DNA of 64,000 bases. Origin: Parachlamydia sp. AcF125 (lineage in GTDB: Bacteria; Chlamydiota; Chlamydiia; Chlamydiales; Parachlamydiaceae). Location: the NCBI RefSeq assembly GCF_018342475.1, contig NZ_JAEMUD010000002.1, forward strand, positions 62,001 through 126,000, given 5' to 3'. Position numbers and translations under genes: made by a program. Shown piece after piece: positions 37,778 to 55,429 of this stretch. The notes under the pieces are model-generated. The model searched no databases and had not been told where the DNA came from. It saw only the letters and a program-made list of their open reading frames with translations. Within the stretch, counting starts at the first letter, position 1. Every line of letters begins with the position of its first letter.

Positions 37778-39877
37778 ATGAGGATATGGGCAATATACCA
37801 GGCAGGCTACTTAATATTCAAAAATATAGACACTGGGCAAAATTCCATTCGGGTGCCTTCCCTTATCGAACGCATTTTTTTTAGCACCCTAGAAGTAAAA
37901 ATAGAGCTGGAGAACGGCAGAGAGCTTTTTTGGTTAAAGAAGGGCGATCTCACCGATTTTTTGGAAAAAAACGAGATTAACATTTCTCCTTATGCCTCTG
38001 AAACAGAGCTAACAGATCTATTTCACCAGTTTGTCCGCTATCCCCAAATTGTAAAAGCAAAACATAGGCCTCAACTCCTCTTAGGAAAGTACTTAGGAGG
38101 AAGAATTAAGCTCGATATTTGGAGGCTAGATTCAAATGACCAAGGGATTAAAGAGGCGAGCCTTTTTGAATGGCTGTTTACCAAGACGGTTAAGCTTCCA
38201 ATTTGGAACGGGAAAAACATTTTTACCTACTACGTTAAAAAAGAAGAACTCATTGAAAAATTAAAAATTCATCAAGTGAGAGTAGATGCCCAGATCTCCA
38301 ATGAAAATCTACTGGATAAAATTAGAGCGCTAGCGATTCTCCCTCTGAATGCTTTTAAAAATGGTTTAATCATGAATGAACTGCTTGGGGATTTTTTTTA
38401 CACCCACTCTGCCGAATCTTATACAAAGGCAGGCAAAAAAATTGAGGGAACGGCAAAGAATAAATTACATTTTATTTCAAAATGGGCCCCTTCTCCAAAA
38501 CTTGCTTTAAAAACTTATGAGGGCTTGGAAGAAAAAGAATTCGCTAAAAACCTTCTTTTAATCCAAGTTTTCCAAAAAAAATATCAACTTTCTACCTATA
38601 TCGACGCCGATGCGCTTGCCCAACGCTTCCATCTTCCCTTGGAAGAAGTTAAAGCAAGCGCAAAGAAAGGGGAGTTGGAGGCTTACTTAAGGTCTAAAGA
38701 AGCTCACCTGGCAAACCTGGAGGTGATGCTTTCTAACTACGCACGTTTATTTGAAAAACAACGGTTCTTCGAGAAATCGGGCTTAACTCCAGAAGTGCTA
38801 ATGAAAATGATCCGCGCTTTTGCTAAAAGAGGACGTGAAGGGAGAAATCCCATTTTAGAAAAAAAGCCTTATTTGAACGGGCAAAAATATATTGGCTTAT
38901 TTCGAGGAGAAAAACTGTATATGGCCAATATCACCGCTCTAAAAAGAATTAACGAAGGGGCTTTTATCGCAGCAACGAGGGTGTATAATCCTATCTCGCG
39001 AAGAGAAAAGGTTTTAAAAATCACTAAAACTCACCATTCCGAAATCGGCCAAGCGCAACAAGCTTTAAAAAACGAATACGACTTTCTGCACAACCTTCAC
39101 AGGGGATTTCCTGGAAGAAAAATTCCAGGCATTCAAAAAGCTCCCTATGCCATGATTAACTGTGAGCAAGGCAGAGAAAAACAAGGCTTTTTGTTGGCTC
39201 CCAAGTATATAGGGGATACTTTTGATTACGACTACGCGAATATCATGAGTGACGAAGAAGTCATTCATGCTCTTTATAAGCTGCTGAAAGGTTTTGAATA
39301 TTGCGTTAAGAAAAAAAACTTAGGACACGGAGATATTAAACCCGAAAACCTCCTCATCAGAAAAGTAGGGCAAACCTACGAAATAGACTTATCTGATTTT
39401 GGGGGTGCGCGTATTTTGGGACATGATCAAAGCCTAGGAACATTTACGCCCAATTATTTCCCTTATAACGATCTTTTTCTCCTGCAGGAGTATGGCACAG
39501 GGGATCCAGATAATCAAGAGCTATTTGATTATTATTTTAAATTAAGAGATGCCTATGCTTTGGGAAGTTCCATGTATTTTATTTTATCAGGTGGACATGA
39601 ACCCTATCGATTAAAAGAGTATGATCAAACTGCTTACTGTCCCTATGGAGAAGAGTTGATCGCTCGAAGCGAGACTTTTGCACCTGGAAGGCACCCTCCG
39701 CCTGAAGCAGATTTCGATCGGGAGACCCTGCAACTAAAAGGAATCTCCCCTGAAATGATTGAACTTATAGAAAGGATGGTCCAATTAAATCCTAATGAGC
39801 GCATTGATATTCATCAAGCAGCGAAGAAATTTGATGCTTATATGGCGCTTAAAGGAAATATGCTTAAATTGTATTAA
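37778..39877 (+). CDS. eukaryote-like Ser/Thr protein kinase with duplicated N-terminal module
   Basis: 699 residues. The C-terminal half is a protein kinase: VLKIT with the ATP-binding Lys at 414, HGDIKPEN at 517-524 (catalytic Asp in HGD instead of HRD, a common variant) and DFGGA at 540. The motif LNPNERIDIHQAAK closes the domain. Two similar modules sit in the first 200 residues, starting SLIERIFF (about 26) and SLFEWLF (about 127), each ending in a Lys-Lys-x-[DE]-L helix. No signal peptide or membrane segment. Kinases of this kind in intracellular bacteria are often secreted effectors; that is inference. It stands alone between transposon debris and an unknown gene. Confidence 0.8.
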   Translation: MRIWAIYQAGYLIFKNIDTGQNSIRVPSLIERIFFSTLEVKIELENGRELFWLKKGDLTDFLEKNEINISPYASETELTDLFHQFVRYPQIVKAKHRPQLLLGKYLGGRIKLDIWRLDSNDQGIKEASLFEWLFTKTVKLPIWNGKNIFTYYVKKEELIEKLKIHQVRVDAQISNENLLDKIRALAILPLNAFKNGLIMNELLGDFFYTHSAESYTKAGKKIEGTAKNKLHFISKWAPSPKLALKTYEGLEEKEFAKNLLLIQVFQKKYQLSTYIDADALAQRFHLPLEEVKASAKKGELEAYLRSKEAHLANLEVMLSNYARLFEKQRFFEKSGLTPEVLMKMIRAFAKRGREGRNPILEKKPYLNGQKYIGLFRGEKLYMANITALKRINEGAFIAATRVYNPISRREKVLKITKTHHSEIGQAQQALKNEYDFLHNLHRGFPGRKIPGIQKAPYAMINCEQGREKQGFLLAPKYIGDTFDYDYANIMSDEEVIHALYKLLKGFEYCVKKKNLGHGDIKPENLLIRKVGQTYEIDLSDFGGARILGHDQSLGTFTPNYFPYNDLFLLQEYGTGDPDNQELFDYYFKLRDAYALGSSMYFILSGGHEPYRLKEYDQTAYCPYGEELIARSETFAPGRHPPPEADFDRETLQLKGISPEMIELIERMVQLNPNERIDIHQAAKKFDAYMALKGNMLKLY

Positions 39878-43878: not shown

Positions 43879-43916
43879 AGCCAAGTGTGAAAGTTGACTG
43901 TTTTATGGAGGTTTAG

Positions 43917-45416
43917 GTGAATAGAGACAATCAGGACCAAGAGCATAAAACAGAGGGATCTCATTATCCGCAGGGGCATCTGCTAGATTCTAAAATCAGT
44001 CACGTAGATGATGTATTAAACGAAAAGTTGGAAAGAGCCTTTCACAAAGAAACCGCTCAAGTTTTGCTGCATGACGTGGCTAAAATTGCAAGTGAACACG
44101 ACCCCATTGACTTAGCTTACGCGGTGAGTCGCCTTCCCCCACATGCAAGGGTGGTGGTTTATGAAAATTTGCCTGACCTCGCGGCAAAGATTATTTTCAT
44201 GATTAATACGGGAAGTAGCACCCGCTCAGTTATTTTTCGAGAAATTGACGACGATGAAATTTTACAGTTGATCTCGGGCATGCCCCCTGACGAAGCTGTA
44301 TGGATACTGGACGATATGTCTGATCGTCGCATTCGCAGAATTTTAGATCTTTTGGAACCGAAAAAAGCTTCCCGAATTCGAGACTTACAAAAGCACGATC
44401 GACATAGTGCTGGACGCTTGATGAGCAACGAATTTTTTGCTTTTCATATGAACACGACAATCGGAGAAGTCGCTGTTTGCATCCGCAATAATCCAGGCAT
44501 TGAATTTTCCCGTAGCATTTTTGTGTTAAATGATGCAGGAGAGCTAGCAGGCTTCGTACCAGGGAGAAATTTGATCATTAATCCTGATGAAGTGCAGCTT
44601 AGGCAGATCATGGGGCCTGTGTTGCATAAAGTGACTGTAGATACTCCTCGAGACGAAGTTGTGGATTTGGTCGAAAGATATAAAGTTCCTGCTTTACCGG
44701 TAGTGAATCAAGACAATCATTTGGTGGGGGTGATCACTTATAATAACGTGGTGGAGGCCCTGGAAGATATCGCCGATGAAACCATTGCCAGCATTGCGGG
44801 AACGGCAGAAAGTGTGAGTGAACATGAACCTGTCTTTAAACGCTTTATGTGGCGTGCTCCTTGGTTATTGGTCACCCTATGCGCAGGGCTTGTGACCTCT
44901 ACAGCCATGTCGCATTTTAACGATCGTATTTGGTTTGCATTCGTTCCTTTTTTTGTGCCCTTAATTACCGGGATGTCTGGAAATGTGGGGATTCAGTGCA
45001 GTACCATTTTAGTTAGGGGAATGTCCACGGGTGAGTTATCTCCAGGGAGCCGGGGAGAAGCGATCGGCAATGAAATGGGGATAGGCACTTTGATTGGTTC
45101 AATCTTTGGTTTAATTTGTGGCTTGGTTGTTTTTTTGCTTCATCATTTTGGGTTTCACGATTTGGGAACAGATCCTTTGATGCTTTGTATGACTGTCAGT
45201 TTTGGGGTTTTAGGAGCTTGTTTAACAGCCACGATATTGGGCACACTCTCTCCCTTTTTCTTTGTAAGACTCGGGGTGGATCCGGCGGTTGCTTCCGGTC
45301 CTATTGTGACAGCCTTTAATGACGTGCTGTCAACCCTGATGTTCTTTCTTGTCGCGAGGATTACAAATGTCTTGTATTCCCATTTTTATTATGCCACCAA
45401 TGAGCCTTTATTTTAG
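43917..45416 (+). CDS. mgtE: magnesium transporter MgtE
   Basis: 499 residues. The order is the usual one: a cytosolic helical N domain (LAYAVSRLPPHARVVVYENL, MPPDEAVWILDDM), a CBS pair at about 190-290 (GELAGFVPGRNLI, VPALPVVNQDNHLVGVITYN), then five membrane helices from about 310 with the pore signature GMSGNVGIQCSTILVRG. Imports Mg2+ and closes when cytosolic Mg2+ fills the N/CBS sites. The start is GTG at 43917, set by GGAG ten bases upstream; the nearby ATG 43905 is closed by a stop after three codons. Confidence 0.96.
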   Translation: MNRDNQDQEHKTEGSHYPQGHLLDSKISHVDDVLNEKLERAFHKETAQVLLHDVAKIASEHDPIDLAYAVSRLPPHARVVVYENLPDLAAKIIFMINTGSSTRSVIFREIDDDEILQLISGMPPDEAVWILDDMSDRRIRRILDLLEPKKASRIRDLQKHDRHSAGRLMSNEFFAFHMNTTIGEVAVCIRNNPGIEFSRSIFVLNDAGELAGFVPGRNLIINPDEVQLRQIMGPVLHKVTVDTPRDEVVDLVERYKVPALPVVNQDNHLVGVITYNNVVEALEDIADETIASIAGTAESVSEHEPVFKRFMWRAPWLLVTLCAGLVTSTAMSHFNDRIWFAFVPFFVPLITGMSGNVGIQCSTILVRGMSTGELSPGSRGEAIGNEMGIGTLIGSIFGLICGLVVFLLHHFGFHDLGTDPLMLCMTVSFGVLGACLTATILGTLSPFFFVRLGVDPAVASGPIVTAFNDVLSTLMFFLVARITNVLYSHFYYATNEPLF

Positions 45417-45434
45417 GCCTATCAAGAGGCTCAC

Positions 45435-46118
45435 ATGGATGAAGGCTCGGACACTTATTGGCAGCTTTTACAGTTGAATCTTAAAGTCAAATACCGCAAT
45501 TTTAAAGAATTTTGTACGGTTGTGAAGCGTTACTATGGTAACCGTCAATTTTTTCAATGCGATCTTCTTCTTTTATGCCAGTATCTTTGGCAAAATCCCT
45601 TTGCAATTAGCAAGAATTTTTTAATGCGCAAAGAAGAGAAAGAAATATATGCTTACGGAGAAACCCCTTTAACCAGCCTGGAAAAAATCGCGGCGGCTTG
45701 CCAGATCACTTCAAAGGATGTCGTGTATGAACTGGGGTGTGGACGAGGAAGAAGCTGCTTCTGGACGCATTGCTTTTACCAATGTTCTGTAATCGGCATT
45801 GATTTTGTTCCTGCTTTTATCCAAAAGGCAGAAAAAGTAAAAGCCAAATGTCATCTTCAAGCTATCGAATTTAGATGCGAAGATATGCTACAAACAGATT
45901 TTTCTAAGGGGACCTTATTTTATCTTTATGGGACCTGCTTAGAAGAGGACTTAATTAAAAAACTTCTCGAAAAATTCAAGTCATTACCTGCCGGAACAAA
46001 AATTGTGACAGTTAGTTATCCCTTAACTGATTATTCCCCTGATTTTGCTCTTATCAAAACTCTTTCTGTACCGTTTACGTGGGGAGAGGGGGATGTTTAT
46101 ATTCAAGTCAAATTGTAA
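45435..46118 (+). CDS. class I SAM-dependent methyltransferase-like protein
   Basis: 227 residues. Motif I is VYELGCGRGRSC near residue 95, followed by VIGIDFVPAFIQKAE (motif II acidic residue) and FRCEDMLQTDF; an extended helical N-terminal part (first 70 residues) precedes. Substrate unknown. It starts 18 bases after mgtE on the same strand, so it is probably co-transcribed. The layout recalls DOT1-like or small-molecule methyltransferases, but nothing decides. Confidence 0.75.
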   Translation: MDEGSDTYWQLLQLNLKVKYRNFKEFCTVVKRYYGNRQFFQCDLLLLCQYLWQNPFAISKNFLMRKEEKEIYAYGETPLTSLEKIAAACQITSKDVVYELGCGRGRSCFWTHCFYQCSVIGIDFVPAFIQKAEKVKAKCHLQAIEFRCEDMLQTDFSKGTLFYLYGTCLEEDLIKKLLEKFKSLPAGTKIVTVSYPLTDYSPDFALIKTLSVPFTWGEGDVYIQVKL

Positions 46119-46238
46119 TAACGGGTAGGACTTGAAGGTTTAGCATAGACTTGCTGGCTTTCGCAAAATTAAACAGAATTGGAAGACAGCTATATCATTT
46201 CAAAAAGCAAAAAAAAGGTTTTTTGCCTTCTCCTGTAA

Positions 46239-46505
46239 ATGCCATGGAAACATTTATCGCTGGATGAAGTAACTAAACCTTTTCTTATGAGGCTTGAAGT
46301 AAATTTTTATCCCCATGCGGATGGCTACGGTCGCCTTTATCAAAGAGGTGCGAATTTAAAAAGCCATCTGTTGATTGGATCAGATATTGATGAGAAGCTG
46401 ACGGTTGTAGATAAGCTAACGAGGGAAGTGCTAATCGGTCAGAAGCAAAAGCTTCTGGCCTGGAAGGATAAAGCTCTTGCTCATCTGGGTATTTTGCCCA
46501 GGTGA
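46239..46505 (+). CDS. small hypothetical protein
   Basis: 88 residues, MPWKHLSLDEVTKPFLMRLE to LAHLGILPR, not recognised. No convincing ribosome site before ATG. Composition is protein-like (balanced charges, hydrophobic periodicity), and it follows the methyltransferase on the same strand. It might be the tail of a decayed gene. Confidence 0.35.
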   Translation: MPWKHLSLDEVTKPFLMRLEVNFYPHADGYGRLYQRGANLKSHLLIGSDIDEKLTVVDKLTREVLIGQKQKLLAWKDKALAHLGILPR

Positions 46506-46760
46506 GAATTAAACGTTACTGCCCATTTCTTTTAGGTTTGCGCTTGGACTTGCTCTTATAAATTAGATCCACAAGCATAGTACCCGTTTAAAGGTCCCAT
46601 CATATGCTTGGGACCTGTCGTTTTGGTTCGGTATCCCTTTGTCATCTCTACTCGCCAAGGCCTTTAGGGCAGAGTTTTTATCAGTCTTGCAGAGTATTTC
46701 TAGCCTTAATAAAATAGCTTAAAGCGAGCCAAATGGCTTTTATATTGCTGGGAGGAAATA

Positions 46761-47849
46761 ATGGCTATCAATTTTAGAAGGGCTGGAGGATCTGCTCAAG
46801 TGCCTCAAAACCCAATGCATAGTCAATATAAAATCCAAGAATATGAGCAATCTGGTGACTATGCGTCTGCTTTAAAGATAGCGCGAAATACCTATGAGGG
46901 GTTACTAAGGCAGGGATTCTCACAAGAAGCGGCGAAGACTTCCAAAACAGTCGAACGTCTAGAAGAAAAACTTTTAACTTTAGGATCGTTAAGGCTTCTT
47001 TTTGATGAAAATTATCAACCAAGAGGCAAGCTTCGGCAACTTTTAGAACTTGTAGGGATGGAACCCTTAAGCCAAGCAGAAAGCGCAATCGTGCAAATTA
47101 ATCATTGGGCACAAAAAAATCTTCTGCGGCAAGGCGAGCGGTGGCAAGAGCAAGCAAGCAGGTTTGAAGAATTAAAAACGGCGATAAAGCCCCTGCTAAG
47201 TGAATTAGGATTTATAGAGGCTACCCTCCCACATTTTAAGAAATACGAAGGGGCTATTGTGCATGGGAGTCTCTTGCTAGAAGTACGCATTCGGCTTTAC
47301 TATCTTGTAGAACAATGGTGCCAAGGTGTTAGATTCCCTTATCTTTATTTCTTAAGCGGGGAGCGCCCTTTAGAAGGGCAACATGAAAATATCGCTACTC
47401 TTATGCAAGAAGGTAAATCGCTATTAAAAATAAGAAAAGAGGGGGGGGAGCCTTTAAGATTTCCAAAAACAGAAGGCGAAATGGTTCGTCTCATTTGGGA
47501 GCAATCGGAGATTCCAGAGGAGATGCGAAAAGAAGTAAAAGTCCATTTTATCAATGCTCCCATGAAAAAAGATCTAAAAGATGGAAAATTTCTTCGGCCT
47601 ACCACGAGTGATGCTGTAGAGGCTTGGGTAAAAGCTGTACCTCCTATTGGACGTTATTTAGCTATCACAAACGCTCCATATATTAATCGGCAGGGCCTAA
47701 TTGCGCGAACAATTGCTCCTAAAGTGTATTGTTTTGATACAATCGGCGCGGAAGCAAATGAACAAGAAGAAGTGGCTATTTTTCTCGATGAGCTTGCTAG
47801 GTTCATTTTTCAGATCAAGCAAAATTACGACAATAAATTATCTACCTAA
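46761..47849 (+). CDS. conserved-looking hypothetical protein, 362 residues
   Basis: Excellent ribosome site GGAGG. Residues 20-80 look like helical hairpins of TPR type (YEQSGDYASALKIARNTYEG). The C-terminal two thirds has alternating strands and helices: KYEGAIVHGSLLLEVRIRLY, PYLYFLSGERPLEG, TEGEMVRLIWEQS, GRYLAITNAPYINRQG, VAIFLDELARFIFQ. This arrangement (a GAIVHGS strand, a SGERP loop, a closing catalytic-like strand) reminds me of DUF218/YdcF-like proteins, but that is only an impression. No signal peptide or membrane helix. Confidence 0.7.
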   Translation: MAINFRRAGGSAQVPQNPMHSQYKIQEYEQSGDYASALKIARNTYEGLLRQGFSQEAAKTSKTVERLEEKLLTLGSLRLLFDENYQPRGKLRQLLELVGMEPLSQAESAIVQINHWAQKNLLRQGERWQEQASRFEELKTAIKPLLSELGFIEATLPHFKKYEGAIVHGSLLLEVRIRLYYLVEQWCQGVRFPYLYFLSGERPLEGQHENIATLMQEGKSLLKIRKEGGEPLRFPKTEGEMVRLIWEQSEIPEEMRKEVKVHFINAPMKKDLKDGKFLRPTTSDAVEAWVKAVPPIGRYLAITNAPYINRQGLIARTIAPKVYCFDTIGAEANEQEEVAIFLDELARFIFQIKQNYDNKLST

Positions 47850-48852
47850 CTGTGAACTTTATTATCCAAGCTAAAAATGTAATTAGTTTTCAGTATTTTA
47901 AGAATGTCCTTAAAAAGGAGAGGATTTCTTAAAGACTATCTACAAAAAGCTAGCTTAAGTTACTTAACCTCTTAGATATCTTCTACATATTCTCAACTAA
48001 ACACTCGTAAATCTGGTATCTGTAATTGACTCGTCCTCCTTGCTTAACCGTCGAGATTTTCCTAGCCACACAAAAGTTCTTTCCATAATCTATCTTTGGG
48101 GTGCTATCCCAAATTTTTTTTAATTTTCTCCAACTGTCTCCCGCTCAATTTTCTATAATCAAAGTTTATTTCTGCTCTCATTCCCACTATCCAGAGGCTC
48201 TAATCTATCACGCTCCGTACAGCTTGTCGCATTAACTTTGTCACTGATCCTCAGGCTAAGGGGGCCACCTATTTTTAACTGCTTTTTTACGCTTTGGAAA
48301 TCAACTATTTCAACTGAAGTGTTGCCGTTTCTGCCTAATGCCTCGGGCGAAATGTACTTTCCAAGGATCGCGGATGGTTACAGATAGAGCGCCTTTTTCT
48401 TCAAAGGCATGAAGGGGATGTTCACAGCTCTTCATGGAGGAGAATCGGGGATATGTCTCTTCCTTGGCATCGCGTGGGTAAAATATAAACAAGGTATTCA
48501 ACCTTTCTCGCCTGCAAAATTGAGCTTGGTTCTGGGATCCGCCATGGATCTCTCATTTGAACAAATGTGCTATCCTATTCCCTTCATCTTCAGATAAATC
48601 GCTCGGATAGCCAGGCCTTTCCTCATATTTTATAGTATTTTTTGCTGAGAAAACTGTTAATAAAGTTTAATTAAAATTTTACTGTATATTTTATTAAGGC
48701 TTTGACCTTTAAAAATAAGGATAGCTAAAAGCCTGCTTTTTTACTTATGAGGTTTTTAATTTATATTTTTTAAAAAATAATTATATTGTTATTATTTAAA
48801 TATGCCCCTTTTATTGTATTAATATTAACTCATATAAAAAATGAGGTGATCT
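47850..48852. other. 1-kb gene-poor region with a possible coding relic
   Basis: No complete gene. On the minus strand 47983-48144 is open for 53 codons without a start (SWRKLKKIWDSTPKIDYGKN to YQIYECLVENM), which looks like the tail of a lost protein. A 62-codon plus frame at 48409 has no support. The last 200 bases are very AT-rich and should carry the promoter of the next gene. Confidence 0.4.
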
Positions 48853-49905
48853 ATGGAACCTCTTGGTCACGCCCATATACAGCCTAATAGCGCCGAACCT
48901 GAAAAATTAAGAAGTTTAGCGCCTAAGGGCAGCAAGAGTGAACAACGTGTTCAACAGTACATTCAAAAAACCTTAGAAGCTACAAGCCACCAAAAAGAAG
49001 TTGAAGTTGGAAAAGTAAAAAGTGCTTTCGCTGAAGAAGCAAAGCTGAGCAAATACCGGGAGGAGTCGGTAAAAAAATTTCAAAAAGTTGGTGAGCATTA
49101 TGGCGGAACTAAACTTCTTAACCTTAAAGGAATGACTTTTGTAGTTCCACTAGATGCAGAAAAAGTGGAACAGGGGTATCAGGAAAAAAAACAGGAAATT
49201 GCTTCACGCATTTCAATTATCGAAGATAGGGAGCATATCCAACAGGCTAGAAGCTGGCAAAATTCAAGCACCACAGTCGCAGATCTGCTTAAAGATGCCG
49301 AGTCTTTAAAGGGAACATATGCCGGGTTTTTAAGAGAAATTGCCTTCCAAAATAATGGTGAGGCGCATTTTGGCCCTGATGATATGTTCATTACCAAAAG
49401 CGAAAGCAGTTTGAGACGCAAAGTGAATGACGATATGAAAATATTGGGTAAAACAGAAGAACAATGTACCCAACAAGCGGGAGATTCCTTGCGGGGAACG
49501 GTTGTATTGGAAAAGCCTGAGAATATTACAGGTTTCGTAAGAGCATTCCAAGAAAAATGCCAAGAAAAAGGCTATGATGTCACATTTAAAAATGTCTGGA
49601 AAGAGGACAGATCTACTGGATATGTGGGTGTGCATGCTAAAGTAAAAATGGTGACGGACCAAGGAAAGACGGTGCTTGCCGAATTACAGCTTCACCTGCC
49701 GCAGATCTATGACGGGACCATTGCTTGCGTCAAAGAACAAAGCCACCATATCTATGAATATGCTAGAGAGGCCTACGGTCCAGGAAGCGAGGAAACAAGA
49801 AAGCCGCAGCCTCCTTCTTTCGCCAATGGAATAAGCAAGCTACAGTTTCTTAGTCACATGCTGGATATACAAAGAAAACCCTCACAAATAGGAAAAGTCT
49901 TATGA
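48853..49905 (+). CDS. RelA/SpoT-like nucleotidyltransferase-domain protein (candidate toxin)
   Basis: 350 residues. The first 170 are helical and charged. The second half carries the pattern of the RelA/SpoT synthetase fold: TKSESSLRRK at 181-190, DSLRGTVVLE at 211-220, GYVGVHAKVKM at 256-266 and AELQLHLPQIYDG at 276-288, corresponding to the basic ATP-binding loop, the first acidic strand, the G-Y-x-x-x-H strand and the E-x-Q strand. No HD hydrolase, TGS or ACT domain, so not a housekeeping Rel. Related small proteins make (p)ppGpp or (p)ppApp, or pyrophosphorylate tRNA, and act as toxins. Ribosome site AGGTGAT. Its stop overlaps the next start (ATGA), as in toxin-antidote pairs. Confidence 0.65.
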   Translation: MEPLGHAHIQPNSAEPEKLRSLAPKGSKSEQRVQQYIQKTLEATSHQKEVEVGKVKSAFAEEAKLSKYREESVKKFQKVGEHYGGTKLLNLKGMTFVVPLDAEKVEQGYQEKKQEIASRISIIEDREHIQQARSWQNSSTTVADLLKDAESLKGTYAGFLREIAFQNNGEAHFGPDDMFITKSESSLRRKVNDDMKILGKTEEQCTQQAGDSLRGTVVLEKPENITGFVRAFQEKCQEKGYDVTFKNVWKEDRSTGYVGVHAKVKMVTDQGKTVLAELQLHLPQIYDGTIACVKEQSHHIYEYAREAYGPGSEETRKPQPPSFANGISKLQFLSHMLDIQRKPSQIGKVL

Positions 49906-50144
49906 ACAGTCATGCAAACAATTACAATTATCTTTATTTAGAGCCGGGTTATTACGCACGTTTTAACAAGGATGTAGGAAATAGCCAGCTGGAAATCTAC
50001 CGTCCAAATACGAAAACCTGGGTAGCAGAAAACAACCCCAAAATGATCAGGCGTTTTAATCAAGATGGCTCCCAAATTAGCTATCAGGAATTTTTAGAAC
50101 ATAATAATGAAAAAAATAACCCATCCTTTGTGTCTAAGACTTAA
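49902..50144 (+). CDS. small protein coupled to the RelA/SpoT-like gene (candidate antitoxin)
   Basis: 80 residues, no recognised domain; aromatic-rich start (NYNYLYLEPGYYARFNKD) and a conserved core SQLEIYRPNTKTWVAENN and MIRRFNQDGSQISY. The start overlaps the upstream stop by four bases. A paralog about 75% identical stands alone at 51477. Size, coupling and duplication fit an antidote or immunity protein, but there is no direct evidence. Confidence 0.6.
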   Translation: MNSHANNYNYLYLEPGYYARFNKDVGNSQLEIYRPNTKTWVAENNPKMIRRFNQDGSQISYQEFLEHNNEKNNPSFVSKT

Positions 50145-51476
50145 GAGCCTGATTGTCCTCCTAGCTTGGCATTAAACGTTAGGAGTTGGCTTAAATGGCA
50201 AGGCTTAGCCATCGGCAAGGGGATACTCCTGCTGATGGCTACTAAGTCTGGCATTCTGCTGAAAAAGTAAGCCTTAATGGCTTAAAATAAGGGGAAGACA
50301 CAACCGCTCTCTTTTCAGCGCATGTGGCTGTAGTGGCCAATTTACGCCTCCTACATGAGGCATCTTTCTCCTATTATCGTAAGGTTGAGCAAGCGTTCGC
50401 GATTAGCGTCAATTATTTTCCTCTTAGTTGATTTTTAAGGGGGAATCAGGGTGGCAGGAAAGCACATTCAAAAAGAAGAGGAATACAGAAGGACTAGCAG
50501 AATTTATCCATCCTCTTTACTTGTTTTTGGATGGTCCCAATCATTTGGTAAAAATGAGTTGGGGATGAGTCTAGCAATAAGATTTTGAGTCAGCCTTTGA
50601 TGAGATAGCTTTACATCCTTTCCACCAAATTTGCACAAGGGCAGCACTAAAAAACTCCCAAATTCCAACAACAGAAGATAGCTATCGACGCCCCTTTCTC
50701 AGGCTATACTTAAAATAGCTGCCTTGATTCTTGTATATCCTAAAATTTTTTATTTTTAATTTTCCGATAGGCCTTTATTCTCGTGAAATCTAAGGGGTAT
50801 TAACTTAATAAAGCCTATCCAGCCATTAAATAGCCAATAAGAGATAAATTGAATTTCAATTCAGTTGAGTCTTTTTATATATCCATTATTTCAAAAAATG
50901 CTGAGGCACTTTTGCTATCCTTCCCTTAGTGAAGAGTTGCTTTTTTTTCAAGCGAAGGGGGTTCCCTCATTGCCTCTCTCGATTTTGCGCTAAGATAGAG
51001 AGGGCCTAGCTTACTGAGAAAAAAAATATTCGCCGTAGGTTGCGGCCCATTAAAGAAAATATCGACTATTTTTTAATTTCCCCTGCAAAGTTAAAGAGGT
51101 TGCCAAAATATTGAGCAAAATAGAAGGAGAAGATATAAAAAAAGGGTAGAGGTTTCATGAGAAGAACTGTTGTGTGGAAATCCCTAGAAGATATCGGGCA
51201 TTTCATAAAACATTGCGCGAAAAATAAGAGGTTACCGTTAAAGAAACCAGGACAAGTTAGAGATATGGTGGTGATGGAGCGTTTACATTCGCTTAAGAAG
51301 GATGGTCGAAGAAGAAAAAGCAATGCTTGTCCAGCTGTATAGCTCTCTTTCTCACAGATTTGTAAGGATACCTTATTAGTATCCAAGAATAAAGCCACTT
51401 TATCTATCAACATACCCTTTTTGCAGCTAGTTAGTATAGATAGAGGGAAAGAATCATTAAAATAAGGAGCGTTCAA
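50145..51476. other. 1.3-kb region without a convincing gene
   Basis: Several weak frames: GTG at 50451 (46 codons, MAGKHIQKEEEYRRTSRIYP, GGGGG ten bases upstream), ATG at 51157 (61 codons, very basic) and a 136-codon minus frame (51066-51476) antisense to it. None is supported by ribosome site plus composition. It may be the scar of a second copy of the toxin-like gene whose partner survives at 51477. Confidence 0.4.
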
Positions 51477-51683
51477 ATGAATTATAATTATCTTTATTTA
51501 GAGCCAGGCTATTATGCACGTTTTAGCAAAGATATAAAAAATAGCCAGTTGGAAATCTATCAACCAAATACGGGAATTTGGGTAGTAGAAAACAACTCCC
51601 GAATGATCAGGCGTCTTAATGAGGATGGCTCACAAATTAGCTACGAAGATTTTTTAAAATATATAAATGGCAAAAATGATTAA
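51477..51683 (+). CDS. orphan paralog of the candidate antitoxin
   Basis: 68 residues, MNYNYLYLEPGYYARFSKDI to INGKND, matching the protein at 49902 over its whole length apart from a shorter head and tail. Clear ribosome site AAGGAG at 51464-51469, so it has its own translation signal instead of coupling. No RelA/SpoT-like gene precedes it. Retained solitary antidotes are known from toxin-antitoxin and immunity systems, which is the basis for the suggestion. Confidence 0.6.
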   Translation: MNYNYLYLEPGYYARFSKDIKNSQLEIYQPNTGIWVVENNSRMIRRLNEDGSQISYEDFLKYINGKND

Positions 51684-52269
51684 TCATTTGGAAAACTCTG
51701 ATGCTGATCCTAACTTTCCATTAGACTCCGGTGTTGAGTTTTAAATGGCAAGCTACAGCTAGAATTCAAGGGCGATTCCCTTGCACTAGCTGTGAATAGC
51801 CAATCTTTGAATAAAAAGCTTTGTGCTTATTTATTGCTGCTTCTCTGCCTAAATCCAAATTAAAGCCCTCGTTAGCTAAGAAAAAATAACCAGACCAAAA
51901 TATAAACGTCTTATCGGTCTATCTCTTCTTTGTGATATCTCGAGAAGGTAGTTAAAGTCTGGGCAAAAGAGCTTGCACAAGATCAAACGGTTAAGAGGGG
52001 AGCCAGAAAAGAAATAAGTGGAAGAATGGCTAAAAGAGATGAAAAGTAGGCAGCGTCCTTCACCATTCCACGAAGGACTGGAAGGATGTTTATAATGAAT
52101 ATATAGAGAATCGTTTAAGTTAGTTTAAATACAAGTCAGCAAAAAAACTTGCAGTAAGAGCTGAAAAGATAGGAAGTAATCATTGGCACTTAATTTAAAA
52201 CTGTGTACACCTTTTAATTGCACCGAGTTTTTCTAGTAGTTGCATAAACCGAACAAAGGAGATTTCCTT
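51684..52269. other. intergenic, leader of NlpC/P60 gene
   Basis: No gene recognised. Short basic open stretches near 51960-52050 are likely chance. The ribosome site AAAGGAG at 52256 marks the start of the next gene. Confidence 0.4.
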
Positions 52270-53133
52270 ATGACAAGTTTATTTCTTGCTTTCTTGCCTT
52301 TATTTTATTACATCAACTCGCCCGTGATTGAAATGCGAGAACAACCAAACCAAGAGTCAGAAATCGTTTCTCAGGCGTACTTTGCTGAAGGAATTAAGGT
52401 TCTTGAAGAGGCGCACGACTGGATAAAAATTGAAACCACCGTGGATCATTATAAAGGGTGGATCAAAAAAGGCTCGCTTTGCCAAAGGCAAGATTCTTTC
52501 CTATCAAATTCCTCCACAACGTTTGCAAAGGTCAATCGATGTGCAGCCCATCTTTATAGCGTACAAGACACTGTCTATGGGCCCATCTTAACGTTGCCTT
52601 TTGAAAGCAAGCTAGAAGTTTTAGAGCCTAAAGAAGAATCCAATAGCCGTTGGATCAAAGTCTCCTTAGTCGATGGGCGTGAAGGGTATATTCAACGAGG
52701 GGATGTGGCGGTTAATCCAACTTTCGTAGGTCGTGAGCAAATGTGCAACTTAAGTTTGCAGTTTTTAGGCTTACCTTATACTTGGGGAGGCCGCTCTAGC
52801 TTTGGATATGATTGCTCTGGTTTTGTGCAAATGTTATATCGCCAAATGGGAATCTATCTGCCACGCGATACAAAAGATCAAATTAATTGGAAAGGCCTTA
52901 CAGCTATTTCAGTAGAGGAGCTGTCGCCAGGAGATTTGATATTCTTTGGTTTAGCAGAGGATAAAATCCGCCACGTAGGCCTGTATCTAGGTAATAATCA
53001 ATTTATCCATGCGACTGTCGCTGAAAATTTACCTTACATTCGTATCAGTAAACTATCAGATCCTGAATGGAACGGTTCGGGTAGGTTTATCTATCGTGCA
53101 GCCCGTAAGTTAAAAGTTATGAGCGAGGATTAG
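52270..53133 (+). CDS. NlpC/P60-family cell-wall peptidase with SH3-like domains
   Basis: 287 residues from MTSLFLAFLPLFYYINSP; I use this Met instead of the one ten codons upstream because AAAGGAG lies at the right distance. The hydrophobic head is probably a signal peptide or anchor. Two bacterial SH3-like segments follow (about 20-75 and 95-155), then NlpC/P60 with the nucleophile in SFGYDCSGFVQ and the His in IRHVGLYLG, plus a third polar site near FIHATV. Cuts peptide stems of peptidoglycan; chlamydiae keep such an enzyme to remodel their thin septal peptidoglycan. Single gene. Confidence 0.88.
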   Translation: MTSLFLAFLPLFYYINSPVIEMREQPNQESEIVSQAYFAEGIKVLEEAHDWIKIETTVDHYKGWIKKGSLCQRQDSFLSNSSTTFAKVNRCAAHLYSVQDTVYGPILTLPFESKLEVLEPKEESNSRWIKVSLVDGREGYIQRGDVAVNPTFVGREQMCNLSLQFLGLPYTWGGRSSFGYDCSGFVQMLYRQMGIYLPRDTKDQINWKGLTAISVEELSPGDLIFFGLAEDKIRHVGLYLGNNQFIHATVAENLPYIRISKLSDPEWNGSGRFIYRAARKLKVMSED

Positions 53134-53564
53134 CGAACAACGCTTTATGCCTACCCTCGATCGTTACAAATGAGCGAAAGGAGTGGAAGATTTCCTCCTT
53201 TCTATTGCCGATCAAACTTTCGAGCAAATATCTGGTTTTTGGAATGATGAGGAGCCTATTTCGGTCCCGGATTTATGGAGAAATTCAATGAGCCATTTGG
53301 GAATTTAACGAGGATCTTGTGACAGGAAAAAATACGAAAAAAGCTCGAAAGTGGAGCTAAGAGCATGAATGTATAAGTTGAGTTTTACTCTATTTGCCAA
53401 ATCTAATAAGACGTGAATCTCGATTCAAGTTTGTGCTCATGACTACAAATGGCTGCAAGTAACGAATCAGGGCGTTGCTATTGGGGCTACGATTTCACTC
53501 ATTCTCAGTGTTGCCTTAGCTTGCCACGGATGAGGACTGTTGTAAAATGAACTCCAGAGGAAAA
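53134..53564. other. intergenic, no gene seen
   Basis: Between the converging NlpC/P60 and glycosyltransferase-like genes. Short frames only; one near 53440-53540 reads a hydrophobic GVAIGATISLILSVALA, but it lacks a start and a ribosome site. Confidence 0.35.
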
Positions 53565-53604
53565 TTAGCCTCACTTAAAAATAAAAATTTATAAGTGAGG
53601 CTAA
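53565..53604 (-). terminator. hairpin terminator after the 53653 gene
   Basis: TTAGCCTCACTT pairs perfectly with AAGTGAGGCTAA around a 16-base AT loop. On the minus strand the stem is followed by TTTTCC, and on the plus strand by no T-run, so it serves the minus-strand gene. Confidence 0.65.
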
Positions 53605-53652
53605 TATAAAAAAAGCCTTAAGCCATTAGTTTAAGGAGACAGACCTTTCGAG

Positions 53653-54830
53653 TTATCGCATTACTTTAGACGAAATAAACGCCCTAATTGCTTCTTCGAG
53701 TACCACGGGCCAGTCTTCTCGAATCCCTAATTTGCTTAAAATAAAATCTTTTTGGGGCTTTTCTTTAATCTCTTCTTCTAAGTTTTTAATCTCACGGGTG
53801 AGTTGAATGGCATCCGTGACTGTGGGAGCCAAACCATTTCTCACAAGAACATCCTCATATGTCTCGTGACCAATCTGGATGGTTGGAATACCAGCTAAAA
53901 TAAATTGTGGCCCCATACTCGTTTGGTAATAGAAGGCCGCATCGGCTATTATTTGCGCATCGTCAGAGGAAAAATCTGATAGGATGATTTTGGCCCTTGT
54001 GCTTTTTGGCTATGCTCTGCTAACCATGCTGACACTTGTTGCCCATCTTGATTTTCTACTTTTGCTGAGGGGTGTTGTTGAATAATGACTACTATATTGC
54101 TAAGGTCTGTTATTTCCGATGCCTGAGATAAAAAAGAAAGAAAGGCGGGGAACGCTTCCTCAAAGTAGTCTTTGTTATTTCCTCCAAAATAGACCCATAT
54201 TTTTTGCCCTTTGTCTTCAATTCCCTTTCGCCTTAAAAATTCTGAGCGCCTGCTGTCATGATCCGTTCTTCTTTGTTCGGCTACTTTTTCTGCTTGGCTA
54301 ATGGGATAATAGCCAATTCCTAGGCGTGGTTTGCCCGCAAAATCTATTTCTTCATTTTTCTTACTATAAATCTTAGCATGAGCTAAAGCCTCATTCGCAA
54401 ATAAGATGCCTTCTGCAGCTCGCATGACTTCAGCGGCAATCGAAGAATAGTTTCCCGGCACCAAAGGTTCTGGATTATCATAATAGGCAAGGCGGGGTAC
54501 TTTAGCTGCATACGTGGCCAATGCTTTTTGGATTTTAATGTCGAATTCGTCCCCCACATCGGTAAGCACGAGAGAAGCCGTAGAACAAACTTTAGCTATT
54601 TCCTTAGCCAAATTGTCTTTTTCTTCTGAGTTTAGGTTTTTTAAATCAAAAGAAGATTTAACCGCAATGCCTCGTGCTCGCAATTTATCTAATGCGGCTC
54701 CTGTTGCTGCGTGAATTTGAACGTCAAATTGTTGCTCGGTTAATACTTTAGCATAGGTTGCAAAATGATCTGCTGGTGCTCCATGACAAGAAATGAAGCA
54801 TATTGTAGCTACGGGTATAGAAACTGACAT
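53653..54830 (-). pseudogene. GT-B-like glycosyltransferase family protein, frameshifted
   Basis: The first frame starts MSVSIPVATICFISCHGAPA (ATG 54830, with GGAG eight bases before it; an upstream Met at 54866 is less likely) and stops at 53949 after SYQIFPLTMRK. The other frame gives SSDDAQIIADAAFYYQTSMG and runs to 53653. A run of five T at the join should be six, so one T is missing. The whole would be about 390 residues with a GT-B-like fold: N-terminal GHGAP-type glycine loop, KIWVYFGGNN at the hinge, and the C-terminal AGIPTIQIGHETYEDVL donor-site helix. Substrate unknown. The loss may be real, phase-variable or a sequence error. Confidence 0.65.
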
Positions 54831-55429
54831 AAATAAATCTCCATAATTAAAGGTTAATTTATGCATTTAAACCCCTTTTATAAAGAGTTAATATAAGGAT
54901 TAATTAATCACTTATCTAATATCAAGATAAATAAAATGTGATCGCAATATAATTATTTCCTTATTACGCTAATCATGGGCTAATTCATCGATGACTTTTT
55001 AATTTTTGCTATTGTTTTTTGGCTTTCATTTTAAGTTTATAAACTCTGGCAAATGAGGCCGGGTTCGCTCTATATCTCTTCAGTCGGGTGCAGCTACCGG
55101 ATGTTGTCCAATTAACTTACAAAATATCTACGAGCTTTGTTTAGCAAAATACCGTATGACTGTCACCACTCTCTCCAAAGGAAGCTTAAGAACTCGAGTA
55201 TAAAAAAAGGGGGGGGCTCTTTGCGATGACGTATCCTAAACTCAAGACCAGCGCTCAGGGAACAGGTTATGCGGACGATACTAGTTAAGTTGAACATCCA
55301 TTCTGTGCTTTTTACAGCTAGAAGGGGGGAGAAAAAGCGCATAATTTTTTCTTTTTTTGATTTAATTATTGCAAAAAAAATCGACGAAGGGATAAGATTT
55401 CTTCTTTAATTAAGCGTGAACGACATTGC
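54831..55429. other. intergenic before tRNA-Gln
   Basis: 600 bases without a gene, AT-rich next to the minus-strand gene and with short G and A runs near 55207-55345. Must contain the tRNA promoter; no unique candidate chosen. Confidence 0.4.

What the first reader, a model, noticed from the sequence alone, without database searches (positions are those of the whole stretch)
48853..50144. RelA/SpoT-like gene coupled to a small partner: candidate new toxin-antidote module
Seen: four spaced motifs of the synthetase fold (TKSESSLRRK, DSLRGTVVLE, GYVGVHAK, AELQLHL), no HD, TGS or ACT domain, a helical N-terminal half, and an ATGA overlap with an 80-residue partner that has no known domain. Known: single-domain RelA/SpoT-like enzymes occur as toxSAS toxins and as secreted antibacterial toxins with dedicated antidotes; Chlamydia, as I recall, lacks a stringent-response Rel. 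Inferred: this is a growth-arrest or host-directed nucleotide enzyme whose antidote family is new.
Basis: partly seen in the sequence, partly recalled or inferred. Interest (0 to 1): 0.85.

Follow-up and report, generated by a model that had tools for sequence, protein, structure and literature searches.

The report
RelA-type toxin gene with antidote partner
A bacterium that lacks the usual starvation-alarm enzyme carries a gene for a toxic-looking relative of that enzyme next to a small gene that probably encodes its antidote, and the pair recurs, reshuffled and with damaged toxin copies, in related bacteria.

Summary
48853-49905 encodes a 350-aa protein with a C-terminal RelA/SpoT synthetase domain. 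No Pfam model reaches its cut-off, but a profile of 13 relatives matches the exported alarmone synthetase SaEAS (E 4.8e-8), and an AlphaFold2 model matches SaEAS and the T6SS toxin Tas1. D211, R214, E277 and Q279 are invariant in 13 of 13. The domain resembles the end of XopAD effectors and is fused to prohead protease in viral contigs. The 80-aa partner matches no family tested. Of 13 long domain matches in the phylum, 10 lie beside a partner homologue, once upstream and once convergent; three have none. Two other genomes show the same (toxin broken, partner open), as expected of an antidote. The genome has no PF04607 Rel and no HD_4 hydrolase. Best reading: a secreted-toxin-type RelA/SpoT pyrophosphokinase with a new antidote family. 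Toxicity, substrate, export and binding are untested. The toxin kind is known; the antidote family and setting look new.

The parts
48843..48849 (+). Shine-Dalgarno-like GAGGTGA before the toxin gene
   Evidence: read directly
48853..49905 (+). RelA/SpoT-fold toxin candidate, 350 aa; residues 1-130 helical at low model confidence, matched over most of their length only in L020 (from residue 29), in others from about residue 60-100 on or not at all
49243..49902 (+). C-terminal synthetase domain and tail (residues 131-350); model block means pLDDT 78-95 for residues 131-240 and 261-280, lower elsewhere
49902..50144 (+). small partner (candidate antidote), 80 aa, start overlaps the toxin stop (ATGA)
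51085..51413 (+). decayed second toxin copy (two collinear matches, 69% over 144 nt and 81% over 32 nt; no toxin-length open frame)
51477..51683 (+). second, intact partner gene, 68 aa, 74% identical to the first in the alignment

Best explanation
The long gene encodes a toxic pyrophosphokinase of the toxSAS / exported-alarmone-synthetase type: it would move pyrophosphate from ATP to a 3'-OH of a nucleotide (making (p)ppGpp or (p)ppApp) or of a tRNA end, and so stop growth of whatever bacterium it acts in. The overlapping 80-aa protein is its dedicated antidote, translated with it, binding the domain and blocking one of its two nucleotide sites so that the producer survives. The module belongs to an effector/toxin class in which one C-terminal domain is attached to varied N-terminal parts (signal-peptide-like, AAA, a shared ~430-aa region, phage prohead protease), so the protein is probably delivered out of the cell. 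Shown: fold (predicted), conserved active site, varied N-termini, gene pairing kept through rearrangement, toxin decay beside intact partners, no PF04607 Rel or PF13328 hydrolase in the genome. Inferred: toxicity, substrate, binding, export route and target.
For: Profile of 13 homologues hits SaEAS (8vx3) at E 4.8e-8, YwaC at 2.6e-5, and two more small synthetases at 0.0036 and 0.009. The AlphaFold2 model (window plus four viral relatives) has block means of pLDDT 78-95 over residues 131-240 and 261-280; Foldseek's top hits are Tas1 (1.9e-6) and SaEAS (2.5e-6), and the 32 hits at E<=0.001 are RSH-type enzymes; VIA Z 12.4 to SaEAS, rmsd 6.2 over 184 residues, against about 7 for polymerase-type folds. 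SaEAS active-site positions named in PMC12691689 map to D211, R214, K246, H261 (N in SaEAS), E277, Q279. Six of 12 members match the XopAD effector model at E<=1, best 8.1e-8; for the window protein the match is positions 1977-2097 of 2133. A partner homologue lies beside 10 of 13 long domain matches, including two not used to build the partner profile and lying in other orientations (L028, L030). Toxin remnant before an intact partner: window (41 bits; maximum 29.2 in 200 shuffles), G083 (56% identity over 39 aa, E 6e-11), G034; G089 has a domain lacking its first motif, with an intact partner. No PF04607 and no PF13328 in the genome.
Against: Three of 13 long domain matches have no detectable partner, including the closest homologue (L020, 44% identical; genome 63% complete). 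The genome-wide partner search missed G228 and G202, whose partners were seen only in the smaller locus search (E 1.7e-5 and 4.8e-7). The set overlap (8 genomes, where 14 and 12 of 232 carry each; P 7e-9) is partly built in, since 8 of the 10 rows of the partner profile came from toxin loci of other genomes. Two orphan partners (G221, G091:C81) show no toxin remnant. The window protein has no signal-peptide-like stretch and no known export domain, so export is argued from relatives. [quoted passage not shown] dN/dS between the two window partners is 0.26 by NG86 but 0.88 by YN00. Correlation of toxin and partner distances is r 0.79 for 10 pairs (0 of 5000 permutations as high), 0.56 without L025 (26 of 5000) and 0.30 without L025, L028 and L030 (370 of 5000). 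L028 and L030 have D at the position of H261, and K246 is replaced in 7 of 13. Foldseek superpositions of the whole model are loose (rmsd 8-11).
Confidence: 0.55

Rival explanations
1. A cytoplasmic toxSAS toxin-antitoxin module that is never exported: the partner is a type II antitoxin and the toxin is released by stress or phage infection to arrest the cell itself.
For: The overlapping two-gene layout with a dedicated small partner resembles bicistronic toxSAS operons such as faRel2 (PMC11782079 passages); the window protein has no export signal by hydropathy; VIA also aligns CapRel, Z 9.1-9.4.
Against: No PADLOC match of the window pair; several homologues have signal-peptide-like or large N-terminal parts, and the nearest named sequence relatives are an exported enzyme and injected effectors. 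Toxin-first gene order is, as I recall, usual in toxin-immunity pairs but also occurs in TA operons.
Confidence: 0.2
2. A host-directed effector (type III secretion) that alters nucleotides or tRNA in the amoeba or other eukaryotic host; the partner is an escort or inhibitor that keeps it silent before export.
For: Shared domain with the XopAD/PRK09169 effector models; the genome has an FHIPEP-family export gate (PF00771, E 1.9e-226; the family also covers flagellar gates); PMC3482391 notes that intracellular bacteria such as Waddlia hold many toxins and hardly any immunity proteins (passages).
Against: A conserved dedicated partner, and partners kept where toxins decay, fit an antibacterial toxin better; no secretion signal could be predicted with the tools at hand; T3SS chaperones are, as I recall, larger (about 120-160 aa).
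Confidence: 0.17
3. A replacement regulator: a small alarmone synthetase that serves the cell's own starvation response, with the partner as its regulatory subunit.
For: The genome lacks a PF04607 Rel, so a signalling niche is open; active-site residues are kept.
Against: Patchy presence (14 of 232 genomes), not found in the other listed genome of the genus, G097, decaying copies, no HD_4 hydrolase to reset a signal (other hydrolase families not tested).
Confidence: 0.05

Closest known systems
SaEAS, exported alarmone synthetase of Streptomyces albidoflavus (PDB 8vx3; PMC12691689)
   Same: Best solved match by sequence profile (E 4.8e-8) and by VIA Z (12.4); the same D, R, E, Q residues, and K in the window protein
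   Different: SaEAS has a Sec signal peptide and no immunity gene (PMC12691689); the window protein has no signal-peptide-like stretch and has a partner
Tas1/Apk1 with immunity protein Tis1 (T6SS, PDB 6ox6)
   Same: Top Foldseek hit (1.9e-6); a toxin with a dedicated protein inhibitor
   Different: No PAAR domain found by Pfam; no Tis1 row among the 60 of 78 rows shown for the partner profile
XopAD / PRK09169-type effectors with RelA/SpoT domain near the C-terminus
   Same: Residues 178-308 align to positions 1977-2097 of the XopAD model (E 4.5e-7; 6 of 12 members match at E<=1)
   Different: 350 aa against a model of 2133 positions; only its end is matched
FaRel2/ATfaRel2 and CapRel toxSAS modules
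   Same: Two-gene layout (FaRel2, PMC11782079) and synthetase fold (CapRel Z 9.4)
   Different: No PADLOC match; YxxY motif of ATfaRel2 absent from the window partner
Apk2, MuF-fused phage toxin with IapK (PMC12226406, passages)
   Same: RelA/SpoT-type toxin domain attached to phage head proteins; the L021 domain matches phrog_7625, 'head morphogenesis' (E 2.2e-4)
   Different: In the viral relatives found here the domain follows a prohead protease (PF04586; L077 and L078 scanned), not MuF

Membership tests
RelA/SpoT homologue (RSH) synthetase fold | SYNTH fold | tested here: met
   Foldseek: the 32 hits at E<=0.001 are RSH-type enzymes; VIA Z 12.4, rmsd 6.2, 184 aligned residues to SaEAS; model from 5 sequences, mean pLDDT 61
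RelA/SpoT homologue (RSH) synthetase fold | catalytic D, E and nucleotide-binding residues | tested here: met
   D, R, Y, E, Q in 13 of 13 rows; K182 in 12 of 12 that cover it; K246 in only 6 of 13
RelA/SpoT homologue (RSH) synthetase fold | Pfam PF04607 at its gathering score | tested here: not met
   No match for the window protein; 1 of 12 members, E 0.072
toxSAS / toxic small alarmone synthetase | single synthetase domain without HD, TGS, ACT | tested here: met
   Pfam scan of the window protein at E<=1
toxSAS / toxic small alarmone synthetase | toxic pyrophosphokinase activity | not testable with these tools
   needs expression and nucleotide/tRNA assay
toxSAS / toxic small alarmone synthetase | co-encoded antitoxin or immunity protein | tested here: inconclusive
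   partner gene beside 10 of 13 long domain matches; neutralisation not tested
Exported alarmone synthetase (EAS) | export signal or export domain | tested here: inconclusive
   window protein: none by hydropathy or Pfam; two relatives (L022, L027) have signal-peptide-like N-termini by hydropathy; SignalP and type III predictors not available
XopAD-type effector | full-length XopAD architecture (curated cut-off 2000 bits) | tested here: not met
   27.5 bits, only positions 1977-2097 of 2133 matched
Tis1 / ATfaRel2-type antidotes (partner) | sequence or fold match, or YxxY motif | tested here: inconclusive
   no Tis1 or ATfaRel2 row among the best 60 of 78 rows of the PDB profile search; low-confidence model (pLDDT 62) without a fold match below E 1; no YxxY in the window partner, 6 of 15 partners have one

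The most novel reading that the evidence does not exclude
Intracellular bacteria that have lost the stringent response use exported RelA/SpoT toxins with a new small immunity family to fight other bacteria inside the same host cell; antidote copies outlive their toxins as protection against kin.
Probability: 0.2. Interest if true: 0.85.

Novelty: new variant of a known kind. Interest (0 to 1): 0.6.

Why it matters
Toxic alarmone synthetases with antidotes are known, but not, in the papers read and searched here, with this partner family or in a phylum recorded as having no RelA/SpoT homologue (15 taxa, PMC3153485, passages). If true, it shows that bacteria without a stringent response still use its chemistry as a weapon, adds an antidote family that could be tested at once, and gives a natural series (intact pairs, rearranged pairs, toxin remnants with open partner genes) for how antidotes outlast toxins.

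Tried and rejected
Own Rel or Rel remnant: rejected, no PF04607 in the genome, domain profile closest to SaEAS. Phage or plasmid cargo in named records: no tblastn match of the window protein in 72,556 plasmids or 50,697 phages, nor of the L021 domain in plasmids or the L077 domain in phages. Partner as a kelch protein: the PDB profile hits are short stretches summed over kelch blades and its model gives no fold match below E 1; not accepted as homology. Partner as an alarmone hydrolase: too small, no such family found. A fold other than RSH: polymerase and TdT rows appear only at lower Z, about 7. Chance matches in the domain profile search of the PDB (dynein light chain E 0.067, FANCL 0.26) were set aside. 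Mirror-tree correlation not used as proof. dN/dS between partner copies inconclusive. Third partner copy on contig C4: broken, no toxin remnant found near it. Promoter and terminator scans gave no more than shuffles. No paper found that joins this pair to Chlamydiae in five full-text searches, listings only (10 of 23 papers were listed); supplementary sequence lists of PMC12691689 could not be read, so chlamydial members may be listed there.

Full report
What is there. The window carries an open reading frame at 48853-49905 (350 aa, ATG, Shine-Dalgarno-like GAGGTGA) whose stop overlaps, as ATGA, the start of an 80-aa frame at 49902-50144. The window lies on a 2.58 Mb, 12-contig genome estimated 99.96% complete.

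The enzyme. No Pfam family matches the 350-aa protein above its cut-off (best E 0.12) and phmmer finds no PDB relative. Searching 232 genomes of the phylum gave 13 genomes with homologues by single sequence and 14 by domain profile. The alignment of 13 domains shows invariant D211, R214, N247, G256, Y257, E277, Q279, H281, G288, H298 and S328 (window numbering). K182 and S186 are in the 12 rows that cover them and K190 in 11 of 12. A profile of this domain hits the solved exported alarmone synthetase SaEAS (8vx3) at E 4.8e-8, YwaC at 2.6e-5, and further small synthetases at 0.0036 and 0.009. Using the SaEAS residue list in PMC12691689 (section 5), D121, R124, K154, N169, E182 and Q184 map to D211, R214, K246, H261, E277 and Q279. 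K246 is replaced in 7 of 13 rows and H261 by D in two.

Structure. AlphaFold2 on the window protein with four viral relatives gave mean pLDDT 61 overall, but block means of 78-95 over residues 131-240 and 261-280. Foldseek's best PDB hits are the T6SS toxin Tas1 (E 1.9e-6) and SaEAS (2.5e-6), and the 32 hits at E<=0.001 are RelA/SpoT-type enzymes; whole-model superpositions are loose (most rmsd 8-11). VIA gives Z 12.4 to SaEAS (rmsd 6.2, 184 residues) and 9.4-10.5 to small alarmone synthetases and Tas1. The N-terminal 130 residues are predicted helical at low confidence; nothing can be said of their fold.

Kinship with delivered toxins. Six of 12 full-length members match NCBIfam's XopAD type III effector model at E<=1 (best 8.1e-8); for the window protein the match lies at positions 1977-2097 of 2133. 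PMC3482391 (passages) had already described RelA/SpoT toxin domains in ESX polymorphic toxins, XopAD and MuF proteins. PMC12691689 (abstract, sections 5, 9 and 28, and passages) surveyed 1,369 Apk1-like sequences and reports SaEAS, VpEAS and AaEAS to inhibit growth in the bacterial cytoplasm; its main text does not mention chlamydiae. In the present set the same domain follows different N-terminal parts: signal-peptide-like (L022, L027; hydropathy only), an AAA domain (L024, PF13401 at 28.5 bits, cut-off 27; below cut-off in L029), and a ~430-residue region shared by L021 and L023. In viral contigs it follows a prohead protease (PF04586, E 5.6e-28 in L077 and 8.7e-28 in L078) near the major capsid gene (scanned in L077); L079 has a frame of the same length that was not scanned, and in L080 the contig end cuts off what precedes the domain. 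Such modularity is typical of delivered toxins; the window protein itself has no recognised export part.

The partner. The 80-aa protein has no accepted match in Pfam, NCBIfam, PHROGs or PADLOC (two partners scanned in PHROGs and PADLOC, ten in Pfam and NCBIfam; scattered single-member hits at E 0.001-0.14 were not accepted). A profile of ten homologues finds it in 12 of 232 genomes at E<=0.01, two of these weak (0.003 and 0.009). There are 13 long domain matches, one of which (G089) lacks the first third of the domain. A partner homologue lies directly downstream in 8 (window, both G091 loci, G100, G093, G095, G084, G089), upstream on the same strand in one (G202, L030 8405-8641) and convergent, stop codons 1 nt apart, in one (G228, L028 6776-7018); it was not found in three (G080, G042, G090; in G090 the contig ends 224 bases upstream). 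The G202 and G228 partners were not in the profile and were missed by the genome-wide search, but score E 4.8e-7 and 1.7e-5 in the search of fetched loci. Of three further toxin fragments, one (G034) has a partner and two (G211, at contig starts) show none. Toxin and partner genome sets overlap in 8 where 14 and 12 of 232 carry each (P 7e-9), but this is partly built in, as 8 of the 10 rows of the partner profile came from toxin loci of other genomes. The partner's AlphaFold2 model, from two sequences, is poor (pLDDT 62: five short strands and a C-terminal helix) and gives no fold match below E 1.

A second, half-dead module. At 51477-51683 lies an intact 68-aa partner copy, 81% identical in DNA over 211 nt. 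Upstream of it, 51085-51225 and 51382-51413 align collinearly with the toxin gene (69% over 144 nt, 81% over 32 nt). The best score, 41 bits, exceeds 200 of 200 dinucleotide shuffles (maximum 29.2) and the same-strand best of 45 other tiles of the window (maximum 26.5). No toxin-length open frame remains. The same pattern recurs in G083 (toxin C-terminal remnant 6470-6586 of L065, then intact partner), in G034 (fragment 7912-8202 of L032, then intact partner) and, less clearly, in G089, where the domain starts after motif 1 and the assembly has 8% contamination. Losing the toxin and keeping the partner is the order expected of an antidote. Two orphan partners (G221, after a gene that looks by eye like DegP; G091:C81 near a contig end) show no toxin remnant. 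dN/dS between the two window copies is 0.26 or 0.88 by method, so constraint is not proved.

Setting. PF04607 finds no Rel in this genome (the control search rings in 12 of 14 genomes); in the phylum 5 of 232 genomes match at E<=0.01 and 3 are over the cut-off. PMC3153485 lists zero RSHs in 15 Chlamydiae (passages). The HD_4 hydrolase family is also absent from this genome; other hydrolase families were not tested. An FHIPEP-family export gate is present. In the other listed genome of the genus, G097, neither toxin nor partner was found, and DNA similarity was found only up to 46441 of 43900-55000 (40 of 58 candidates scored), so the module seems to lie in a variable stretch.

Mechanism. From anatomy and relatives, the enzyme should transfer pyrophosphate from ATP to a 3'-OH acceptor. 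The acceptor cannot be read from sequence. PMC11782079 (passages) proposes that antidotes block the acceptor site of (p)ppApp makers and the donor site of tRNA modifiers. The window partner lacks the donor-site YxxY motif of ATfaRel2 (6 of 15 partners have a YxxY), so I do not assign a site. With no Rel and no HD_4 hydrolase found in the genome, a protein inhibitor is the likeliest protection (inference).

Verdict. The toxin kind is known; the partner family, its persistence through rearrangement and toxin decay, and its home in a lineage without Rel are the new points.

Noticed in passing
L077 3618-5642, L078 3918-5642 (also L079 753-2477, L080 3-680): In viral contigs of ~65% GC the RelA/SpoT toxin-type domain is fused to the C-terminus of a prohead protease (PF04586; L077 and L078 scanned), close before the major capsid gene: a possible capsid-delivered toxin parallel to MuF-Apk2. 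I did not see it in the passages read.
   Followed up: partly
   Followed up: yes
G000:C4:2956-3142 (L004, L005, L033): Third partner copy in the genome, broken, with stops.
   Followed up: partly
L065 6470-6887; L032 7912-8454: Toxin C-terminal remnants directly before intact partner genes in two other genomes.
   Followed up: yes
L067 7307-7534: Orphan partner homologue about 18 nt after a gene that looks by eye like DegP/HtrA, followed by two tandem copies of an unknown ~295-aa gene.
   Followed up: no
L029 3380-3757 minus: A second, divergent partner-like frame (E 1.1e-5) on the opposite strand just after the toxin-partner pair.
   Followed up: no
L021 and L023, N-terminal ~430 aa: Shared region without a Pfam match over its cut-off; the stretch around 'SQSGHYKPE' recalls, from memory only, plant IQM proteins.
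   Followed up: no
G073:C15, G105:C282, G005:C64 (L072-L074): The three genomes of 232 in the phylum with a PF04607 match over the cut-off; contamination or transfer not separated.
   Followed up: no
window 53653-53916 and 53949-54866, minus: Two adjacent frames on one strand that look by eye like one gene interrupted near its 3' end.
   Followed up: no
window 37778-39877: 699-aa frame with a weak C-terminal match to the MAD6 defence kinase model (E 8.6e-7, 27.8 bits against a cut-off of 460).
   Followed up: no
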